A DNA stretch of 64,000 nt, from positions 1 to 64,000 of the forward strand of contig CANQJO010000002.1 of the NCBI GenBank assembly GCA_947624255.1, written 5' to 3'. This stretch comes from an uncultured Ruminococcus sp. (GTDB taxonomy: Bacteria; Bacillota; Clostridia; Oscillospirales; Ruminococcaceae). The notes under the pieces were generated by a model. It searched no databases. It saw only the letters and a list, made by a program, of their open reading frames with translations, and was not told the DNA's origin. Positions within the stretch are counted from its first letter, which is position 1; each line of letters opens with the position of its first letter. Positions 36,207 to 41,790 of the stretch are shown here, piece after piece. Made by a program: the position numbers and the translations under genes.

Positions 36207-36362
36207 GATACTTTCCTCCGATACGTTTTCAACGTCTCAATTATTATATCATATCATGCTGATAATTGCAAGCGGCGGCTCGGCGCTGTTTTATAAATAT
36301 GTTTCCAAAGCATATTGACAATCAGGAAAAAATGGTGTATTATAAATGTAACATATGATTCA

Positions 36363-36500
36363 GAGCTTGTCTTCGTAATGCCTGAGCGTAATTTTGCCAA
36401 AGACAAGAAAATTTGAAGCAATACTGTCATGCTGCGGGAACTTTTACGCATTCATCGGCAAGATCTGCCGTAACAGAGTGCGCAATATCCTGCAATGACA
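36363..36500 (+). ncRNA. Candidate structured RNA, copy 1, upstream of trkA
   Basis: GAGCTTGTCTT...AAGACAAGAAAATTT hairpin, then ATACTGTCA, CTTTTACGCA and CGGCAAGATCTGCCG hairpin; strongly similar to 41482-41620. Confidence 0.55.
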
Positions 36501-36523
36501 ATTTCTTAAAAGGGGATCCATGT

Positions 36524-37882
36524 ATGGATATTATTATTGTGGGCTGCGGCAAGGTAGGAAATGCTCTTGCCGAAGTGCTGTCCGAAGAGCACAGCGTTAC
36601 CATTATTGATAAGATCGAGGATAAGATCGAAGCCGCTGTAAATGACTATGATGTCATGGGAATAGCCGGAAACTGTCTGCAAACAAGTGTTCTTGAGGAG
36701 GCAAATATTGATAAGACCGATATCTTCATTGCTGTTACTTCCTCCGACGAGGTGAACATTCTCTCATGCCTTATAGCAAAGAAAATGAAAGCGCACCACT
36801 GCATTGCACGTGTACGGAATCCGGAATTTGACCGGCAGCTTGTTTTCATGCGTGAGGAGCTTGGTATCGGTATGATGGTGAATCCTGATTACAACGCTGC
36901 CAATGAGATCGCTAAGGTCCTGCGTTATCCGGAGGCTATCAATATCGAGTCATTCGCTAAGGGACGTGTTGATCTTGCCGAAATACGCATAAGCAGCGGC
37001 AGTATCCTTGACAACATTGCACTCAGTCAGCTTTCAAAAAGGCTGAAGCTCGATGTGCTGATATGCGCCGTTCAGAGGGGAGATGAGCTTATTATCCCGA
37101 ACGGCAGCTTTATTCTCAGAGCCGGTGACAAGATCCATATGACGGCATCACACAGCGCAATGGTGAAGTTTTTCCGGAGCATAAGTGCCGCATACCGTGA
37201 AAAGCGTGTAAAATCGGCAGTCCTTATCGGCGGCGGACGTGTGGCATATCATCTCTCAAAACAGCTCATAGAAATGGGCGTTAAAGTCAAGATAATCGAG
37301 ATAGATGAGGAACGCTGCATAGAGCTGAGCCAAAGGCTGAACAAGGTGAATATCTCCCATGCGGACGGTACTGACCACGATATCCTTGAGGAGGAGCACG
37401 TCTATGATGCGGACGCTGTTGTCACACTCACGGGTATTGACGAGGAGAATATACTCCTCTCACTGCTTGCAAAGAAAAACGGCGTTGAAAAGGTCGTCAC
37501 AAAGGTGAACAGAATGTCGCTGATACAGCTTTCTGATACGCTTGCGCTTGACAGCCTTATCTCGCCCAAGACCATAACGGTCAACCAGATATTGCAGTAC
37601 GTCAGGGCAAAGCAGAACTCGGTCGGAAACAGCGTTACAACACTGTACCGCCTTGTGAACGACAGACTTGAAGCTCTTGAATTCGTTATCCGTGATGAAA
37701 AGGAGTATATCGGCGTACCGCTTAAAAAGCTGAAGATCAGGAGCGGTATACTTATCGCAAGCATCGTCCGTGGAAATGAGCTTATAATCCCCAAGGGCGA
37801 TGACTGCCTGCGGATAAATGACAGCGTTGTTGTGATAAGCACCAACAAGGGATTCCACGATCTGAGCAATATCTTCGATTAG
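36524..37882 (+). CDS. trkA: Trk potassium uptake regulatory protein TrkA
   Basis: MDIIIVGCGKVGNALAEVL and a second Rossmann/RCK unit SAVLIGGGRVAYHLSKQL. Confidence 0.95.
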   Translation: MDIIIVGCGKVGNALAEVLSEEHSVTIIDKIEDKIEAAVNDYDVMGIAGNCLQTSVLEEANIDKTDIFIAVTSSDEVNILSCLIAKKMKAHHCIARVRNPEFDRQLVFMREELGIGMMVNPDYNAANEIAKVLRYPEAINIESFAKGRVDLAEIRISSGSILDNIALSQLSKRLKLDVLICAVQRGDELIIPNGSFILRAGDKIHMTASHSAMVKFFRSISAAYREKRVKSAVLIGGGRVAYHLSKQLIEMGVKVKIIEIDEERCIELSQRLNKVNISHADGTDHDILEEEHVYDADAVVTLTGIDEENILLSLLAKKNGVEKVVTKVNRMSLIQLSDTLALDSLISPKTITVNQILQYVRAKQNSVGNSVTTLYRLVNDRLEALEFVIRDEKEYIGVPLKKLKIRSGILIASIVRGNELIIPKGDDCLRINDSVVVISTNKGFHDLSNIFD

Positions 37883-41024: not shown

Positions 41025-41441
41025 ATGCCTACATTCAACCAACTGGTCCGCAAGGGCAGAAAGGATCTCGAATCCAAGTCTACTGCACCTGCTCTCCAGA
41101 AAGGCTACAACGCCAAGAAGAAGGTCCAGATCAACCTCAGCTCACCCCAGAAAAGAGGAGTGTGCACTGCTGTAAGAACGGCTACACCTAAGAAGCCTAA
41201 CTCGGCTATGAGAAAGATCGCAAGAGTTAAGCTCACCAACGGCTATGAGGTAACTTCCTACATTCCCGGTATCGGTCATAACCTTCAGGAGCACAGCGTC
41301 GTTCTTATCAGAGGCGGACGTGTAAAGGATCTCCCCGGTGTGCGTTATCACATCATAAGAGGTACTCTCGATGCTCAGGGCGTTGCCAACAGAGGTCAGG
41401 CTCGTTCAAAGTACGGTGCCAAGAGACCAAAGGCAAAATAA
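41025..41441 (+). CDS. rpsL: 30S ribosomal protein S12
   Basis: [40 protein letters not shown]. Confidence 0.98.
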
Positions 41442-41481: not shown

Positions 41482-41620
41482 GAGCTTGTCTTTACGGCTG
41501 AGTCCAATACTGCCGGGGACAAGAAAATTTAACGGGATATTGTCACAACAGCAAGTGCTTTTTACGCAGATAACGGATCTTCCGGAAATCATGCTGACTG
41601 CTGCTTGTACGGACAGTTCC
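41482..41620 (+). ncRNA. Candidate structured RNA, copy 2, in the rpsL-rpsG intergenic region
   Basis: GAGCTTGTCTTTACGGCTGAG...TGCCGGGGACAAGAAAATTT, ATATTGTCA, CTTTTTACGCA; aligns with 36363-36500. Confidence 0.55.
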
Positions 41621-41790
41621 GGATAGGCTGACTACTGCCGCAAGAAAATGCGGAGATTCTATATAGATCCCTCTGCATTGGTCTTGACGCACCCGACCGG
41701 TGAAGCGCTTTACCTGCCCCGAACGGCGGGAGTAACCGGTCTGTACGAGTACCTATGAATTCATGAATCTATGTGAAGGAGGGAAGCGAA

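What the first reader, a model, noticed from the sequence alone, without database searches (positions are those of the whole stretch)
36363..36500. Candidate structured RNA upstream of trkA (copy 1)
GAGCTTGTCTT-N-CTGAG-N-TGCC-N-GACAAGAAAATTT-N-ATACTGTCA-N-CTTTTACGCA followed by a CGGCAAGATCTGCCG hairpin. A TGTCAT/ATGACA pairing (36425-36500) could close a multistem. The sequence is strongly similar to 41482-41620, 5 kb away. It does not match the ydaO c-di-AMP riboswitch or other K+/Mg2+-linked riboswitch consensus I remember. Location directly 5' of K+ uptake genes suggests regulation.
Basis: partly seen in the sequence, partly recalled or inferred. Interest (0 to 1): 0.66.

Follow-up and report, generated by a model that had tools for sequence, protein, structure and literature searches.

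The report
Decayed mobile-element copy, not K+ switch
The "RNA" in front of trkA is a worn-out copy of a small transposon (MITE) that happened to land there; what is surprising is that its folded core recurs, with a strictly kept shape, inside many otherwise unrelated small transposons across a whole order of gut bacteria.

Summary
The two similar sequences exist as described (36363-36505 and 41482-41620), but they are two of about 25 copies of a repeat in this genome. Relatives carry 12-74 copies each, and 93 of 394 sampled genomes of the order have it. Intact copies are about 160 bp, end in ~20-bp inverted repeats and are flanked by a 3-bp TNA duplication (identical flanks in 31 of 44). IS5-type (DUF4096) transposons with the same ends occur in the same genus. 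These are therefore MITEs. Orthologous trkA leaders and rpsL-rpsG gaps lack the element, and copies face genes at random (15 same, 17 opposite). Both window copies are decayed: 32 and 19 of 53 family pairs kept, against a median of 51. A potassium-linked riboswitch is not supported.

The surprise is the core. A ~90-nt hairpin with invariant internal loops (AAGG/AACGCA and GCA/AA) and freely covarying stems sits inside MITEs with about ten unrelated terminal repeats. On 32 cores, 27 of 28 pairs show double-sided changes (covariation score 0.72; shuffled 0.20). It matches no Rfam family, and no paper describing it was found in the library. What the core does is unknown.

The parts
36363..36505 (+). 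Copy 1: decayed MITE of the GARCYTGT-ended (IS5-like) family, 143 nt, about 14-18 nt of the left arm lost
   Evidence: R2 covariance model 69.0 bits, E 1.9e-14, model 1-161; 73% identity to family consensus, 32/53 family pairs kept
36363..36371 (+). Left terminal repeat remnant GAGCTTGTC
   Evidence: Aligned with 46 full-length copies
36497..36505 (+). Right terminal repeat remnant GACAATTTC
   Evidence: 8 mismatches in the outer 18 bp against the left end
36360..36362 (+). TCA flank, fits the TNA target site but differs from the right flank TTA at 36506-36508
36384..36469 (+). Structured core (CAAG..., ...TTACGCA) in decayed form
   Evidence: Core rows from model alignment and A10
36315..36343 (+). 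Promoter-like TTGACA-17-TATTAT upstream of the element, comparable to the promoter-like sequences of relatives' trkA genes; would put the element in the 5' UTR of trkA
   Evidence: Consensus scan 11/12; similar TTGACA...TATAAT in relatives; inference
36524..37879 (+). trkA
   Evidence: Pfam TrkA_N 1.7e-49, TrkA_C 7.7e-24
41482..41620 (+). Copy 2: more decayed MITE copy of the same subtype, between rpsL (41025-41441) and rpsG
   Evidence: R2 26.5 bits, E 2.7e-4; 19/53 family pairs kept; absent in relatives' rpsL-rpsG gaps

Best explanation
[quoted passage not shown] Intact relatives are ~160-bp DNA hairpins with ~20-bp terminal inverted repeats (GARCYTGT...) and a TNA target duplication, and transposons with the same ends and a DUF4096 (IS4/5-type) transposase exist in the same genus. 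Inferred: those transposases moved the element in trans into the trkA 5' leader and the rpsL-rpsG gap, where the copies have since decayed and serve no conserved regulatory role. Shown for the family: a ~90-nt core with invariant internal loops and covarying stems is shared by MITEs with unrelated ends across the order. Inferred: the core is under selection as a folded single strand (RNA or ssDNA) and is a module distinct from the ends that determine mobility.
For: A model from copy 1 alone finds full-length relatives in 34 of 125 genus genomes at E <= 1, many multi-copy. TIRs and lengths of 157-164 bp; identical 3-bp flanks in 31 of 44 and TNA on both sides in 38 of 44. TIR pattern 101 hits against 4 reversed-control hits in one genome. 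DUF4096 transposons bounded by the same TIRs. Own genome: 26 model hits. Seven equal-scoring copies on both strands of one genome suggest recent amplification. Absent from orthologous sites. No strand preference to genes. Window copies decayed. Core covariation 0.722 against 0.197 (sd 0.016) shuffled and at most 0.199 slid. Transposons lack the core.
Against: The ends of copy 1 and copy 2 are too eroded for a clean TIR or identical target duplication, so their insertion is inferred from family membership and from absence at orthologous sites. Copy 1 still folds well alone (z -3.6), so a secondary local effect on trkA mRNA cannot be excluded.
Confidence: 0.94

Rival explanations
1. A cis-regulatory leader RNA (riboswitch-like) controlling K+ uptake, with a second copy controlling ribosomal proteins.
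For: Position in the predicted 5' UTR of trkA, stable fold of copy 1, structured family.
Against: Not found in the orthologous leaders read; ~25 copies beside unrelated genes in both orientations; transposon ends and TSDs in intact copies; family pairing lost in both window copies.
Confidence: 0.03
2. The copies were exapted after insertion: still MITE-derived, but copy 1 now tunes trkA expression in this lineage (for example by RNase III cleavage or translation effects), as known for Correia and ERIC elements (reviewed in PMC10969869).
For: It is transcribed as 5' UTR if the upstream promoter is used and keeps a stable local fold.
Against: Only this one species carries it here; no conservation to show selection; no terminator-like structure.
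Confidence: 0.1
3. The pairing of the family is only a by-product of palindromic DNA (both ends must fit one transposase; arms corrected by template switching), with no selection on a folded strand.
For: TIR pairing is required for transposition; quasi-palindromes are known to be corrected (own knowledge). In the TIRs G.T and A.C cells are nearly balanced (44 against 31, summed from the table).
Against: The internal loops AAGG/AACGCA stay unpaired and invariant in 32 cores from many families, which correction would erase. Interior G.T cells exceed A.C (188 against 29 in A8, 62 against 17 in A10). Cells count sequences, not independent events.
Confidence: 0.25

Closest known systems
Bacterial MITEs such as RUP, Correia/NEMIS, ERIC (reviews PMC10969869, PMC2229807)
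   Same: Short, intergenic, multi-copy, inverted-repeat ends, target duplication, no transposase, transcripts fold into long stem-loops, ends matching resident IS elements.
   Different: One structured core with invariant internal loops recurs behind many unrelated terminal repeats over an order; I know of no described MITE family with this and found none in the library searches.
IS5-type insertion sequences with DUF4096 transposases
   Same: Share the terminal repeats GARCYTGT...; the TNA target duplication fits the IS1031/ISL2 groups (own knowledge).
   Different: Autonomous, 0.75-0.9 kb, two reading frames, and they do not contain the core.
BOX and SPRITE repeats of pneumococcus (PMC3049150; PMC10969869)
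   Same: Dispersed repeats with conserved RNA-like structure and suspected roles in mRNA.
   Different: Different elements; here the ends are exchanged between element families. No sequence comparison with them was made beyond the Rfam scan.
K+/Mg2+-linked riboswitches (ydaO and others)
   Same: Only the position upstream of a K+ uptake gene.
   Different: No Rfam match even at relaxed threshold, no conservation at trkA.

Membership tests
MITE (the family of intact copies) | 50-500 bp, non-coding | tested here: met
   157-164 bp for 44 copies; no transposase inside; stops in every forward frame of copy 1
MITE (the family of intact copies) | Terminal inverted repeats | tested here: met
   ~18-22 bp arms with 0-4 mismatches in 44 copies
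MITE (the family of intact copies) | Target site duplication | tested here: met
   31/44 identical 3-bp flanks; 38/44 TNA both sides
MITE (the family of intact copies) | Ends match an autonomous transposon able to move it | tested here: met
   Sequence match with DUF4096 transposons L208, L210, L211; movement itself not tested
MITE (window copy 1 itself) | Intact TIR and TSD | tested here: not met
   8/18 end mismatches; TCA against TTA. It is a decayed copy, placed by homology: E 1.9e-14
MITE (window copy 2 itself) | Intact TIR and TSD | tested here: not met
   10/18 end mismatches, no TNA flank; homology E 2.7e-4
Riboswitch / leader RNA of trkA | Conserved upstream of orthologous genes | tested here: not met
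   Absent in the relatives' trkA leaders that could be read at length, 26-27 of them
Riboswitch / leader RNA of trkA | Fixed orientation to the regulated gene | tested here: not met
   15 same, 17 opposite among co-directional contexts
Any Rfam family | Covariance-model match | tested here: not met
Core as a functional RNA | Covariation beyond controls | tested here: met
   0.722 against 0.197 shuffled, 0/500
Core as a functional RNA | Expression and activity of the RNA | not testable with these tools
   No transcript data

The most novel reading that the evidence does not exclude
The ~90-nt core is a functional RNA (or single-stranded DNA) module that has spread through an order of Clostridia by riding in MITEs whose ends were repeatedly exchanged to fit different resident transposases; its two invariant internal loops, built from direct repeats CAAGG-N8-CGCAG whose N8 parts pair with each other, bind a host or element factor.
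Probability: 0.35. Interest if true: 0.82.

Novelty: new variant of a known kind. Interest (0 to 1): 0.52.

Why it matters
It removes a false lead (a K+ riboswitch) and replaces it with a mobile-element superfamily that could mislead other RNA-motif scans, because it covaries strongly. If the core is functional, it would be a case of a structured nucleic-acid module that outlives its transposon ends and changes them, which is testable because cores are numerous and their stems vary freely.

Tried and rejected
Exact or gapped sequence patterns from the two copies found only chance matches; only a structure model worked. BLAST with copy 1 in 60 relatives found nothing convincing. A shared protein frame in the two copies (SLS..LS.ILP.TRKF..ILS) was considered; differences are spread over codon positions (6, 4, 7) and one copy has an in-frame stop, so coding was rejected. 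The first structure (P1 hairpin plus P2-P4) was replaced: the family folds as one long hairpin, and the first structure pairs only 64-74% of cells in other members against 95% for the family hairpin. Phages gave no match; plasmids gave two Subdoligranulum records. tRNA genes at the tRNA-like ends: none found. An autonomous partner for the ATACTRATTTC ends of the own genome was sought in 1.88 Mb held and not found. One exact core pattern in viral contigs: none.

Full report
What was claimed and what is there. Copy 1 lies between a promoter-like TTGACA-17-TATTAT (36315-36343) and trkA (ATG at 36524, TrkA domains by Pfam). Copy 2 lies between rpsL and rpsG. Copy 1 folds better than all 200 shuffles, copy 2 only weakly so. 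No Rfam family matches the window stretch, even with relaxed thresholds.

Not conserved at trkA or rpsG. Protein searches gave the orthologous loci in the genus. In the trkA loci that could be read at length (26-27 relatives) the leader runs from a TTGACA...TATAAT promoter-like sequence to the ribosome site without this element. The rpsL-rpsG gaps of relatives read on the correct strand also lack it; in one of them the sequence ...CCGCATCATAAACCGAATAGGCTGAC... corresponds to ...CCGCATAACA[element]CGGATAGGCTGAC... here. So both sites look like insertions.

A dispersed family. Exact patterns failed, but a covariance model from copy 1 alone found copy 2 (E 9e-6) and many full-length relatives in 34 of 125 genus genomes at E <= 1, up to 22 per genome. 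Seven equal-scoring copies on both strands in one genome (G440) point to recent amplification.

It is a MITE. Intact copies are 157-164 bp with terminal inverted repeats of about 20 bp. Of 44 copies, 31 have identical 3-bp flanks and 38 have TNA on both sides. The end pattern occurs 101 times in one genome against 4 for the reversed control. Transposons with a DUF4096 (IS4/5-type) transposase and the same ends are present in the genus: L208 (GAACCTGTCCACATAGG, about 810 bp), L210 (GAGCCTGTTCAGTATC, about 890 bp), L211 (GAACTTGTTCTCATAG, about 750 bp); the own genome has a DUF4096 gene next to TAAGAACTTGTATTCATAG. Different MITE subgroups carry ends matching different ones of these transposons. 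Among co-directional gene contexts 15 elements point with the genes and 17 against (simple ORF calling).

The window copies are decayed. They keep 32 and 19 of the 53 family pairs; other members keep a median of 51, minimum 46. They have lost 14-17 alignment columns of the left arm and have 8 and 10 mismatches in the outer 18 bp.

The structured core. Hits outside the first group carried quite different ends but the same middle: GGGAACCTCTGAATAAAT, GGGTGTATCTGAAAAATC, GGGTATTACCGCATAATTC, AAGGAGTCTCTGATTAAAT, ATACTRATTTCATTCT (own genome), ATACCGCCYTY-ATGCAAATG (own genome), ATTGCTCCC-CAATTAA (own genome), GGGCGTGCAGATAAGGGATA, and longer elements with tRNA T-arm-like inverted ends. I aligned 32 cores from these groups by sequence alone (A10). 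The consensus is a single hairpin: an outer stem, an internal loop CAAGG against AACGCAG, an 8-bp stem, an internal loop GCA against AA, and a 5-bp stem with a short loop. A24, G25, A69 and C70 are invariant, and A23, G26 and G71 nearly so. 27 of 28 pairs have changes on both sides; 90.4% of cells pair; the covariation score is 0.722 against 0.197 (sd 0.016) in shuffles and at most 0.199 when partners are slid. Both arms carry the direct repeat CAAG(G)-N8-CGCAG, with the two N8 complementary to each other (read). The autonomous transposons do not contain the core, and representative elements match no Rfam family.

What selects the core. Correction of palindromes could keep arms complementary without selection, but would not leave the same unpaired loop bases invariant. 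G.T cells exceed A.C cells in the interior (188 against 29; 62 against 17 in the core set), whereas in the terminal repeats they are nearly balanced (44 against 31; sums made from the table). That is expected if the interior is selected as a folded single strand in one orientation and the ends as double-stranded DNA. Limits: sequences are related, four column pairs give 101 of the 188 interior G.T cells, and the structure was predicted with G.U allowed. In column pairs that are at least 70% Watson-Crick the excess remains but is smaller (core set 26 against 11, p 0.02). The core is probably not needed for movement: in the own genome elements with ATACTRATTTC ends also occur as 67-71-bp forms without the core, in at least as many copies as the core-bearing 156-161-bp forms (1.88 of 2.24 Mb examined).

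Literature. The library has MITE reviews (PMC10969869, PMC2229807) which describe stem-loop transcripts, RNase III cleavage and motif capture, but searches joining MITEs with Ruminococcus, Faecalibacterium or shared cores found nothing describing this family. The library is incomplete, so novelty is provisional. The statement that TNA duplications fit IS1031/ISL2-type elements rests on my own knowledge.

Verdict. Copy 1 is an ordinary, decayed MITE copy: confidence 0.94. Its regulatory role at trkA is unlikely. The superfamily with exchangeable ends and a structure-conserved core is a new variant of a known kind and deserves follow-up.

Noticed in passing
41622-41784: Just downstream of copy 2, the rpsG (S7) leader is strongly conserved in 12 genus genomes and predicted to pair its Shine-Dalgarno GGAGGG with an upstream TCCTCT; no Rfam match. 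Candidate autogenous S7 leader.
   Followed up: partly
L265-L268, L270-L272: Related ~270-nt elements whose inverted ends look like tRNA T-arms (GGGTTCGACTCCC); several (L267, L270, L271) hold a second core in inverse orientation; ARAGORN finds no tRNA there.
   Followed up: partly
G000 C1:67172-67242 and similar; C22:15142-15302: Own-genome elements with ATACTRATTTCATTCT ends come in core-less 67-71-bp and core-bearing ~160-bp classes; autonomous partner not found; left and right flanks often share one base.
   Followed up: partly
G000 C12:15266-15750 (locus L209): IS5-type transposon remnant with DUF4096 gene and left end TAAGAACTTGTATTCATAG in the own genome; no matching right end was seen in the 3.2-kb locus.
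   Followed up: no
L176 (G135:C49): A copy whose ends (GGGCGTGTTGACACTAA) differ wholly from its siblings while the interior is the same: an example of end exchange inside the main group.
   Followed up: no
L192-L197, L204: Short 45-90-bp internal-deletion derivatives of the main MITE keep both ends.
   Followed up: no
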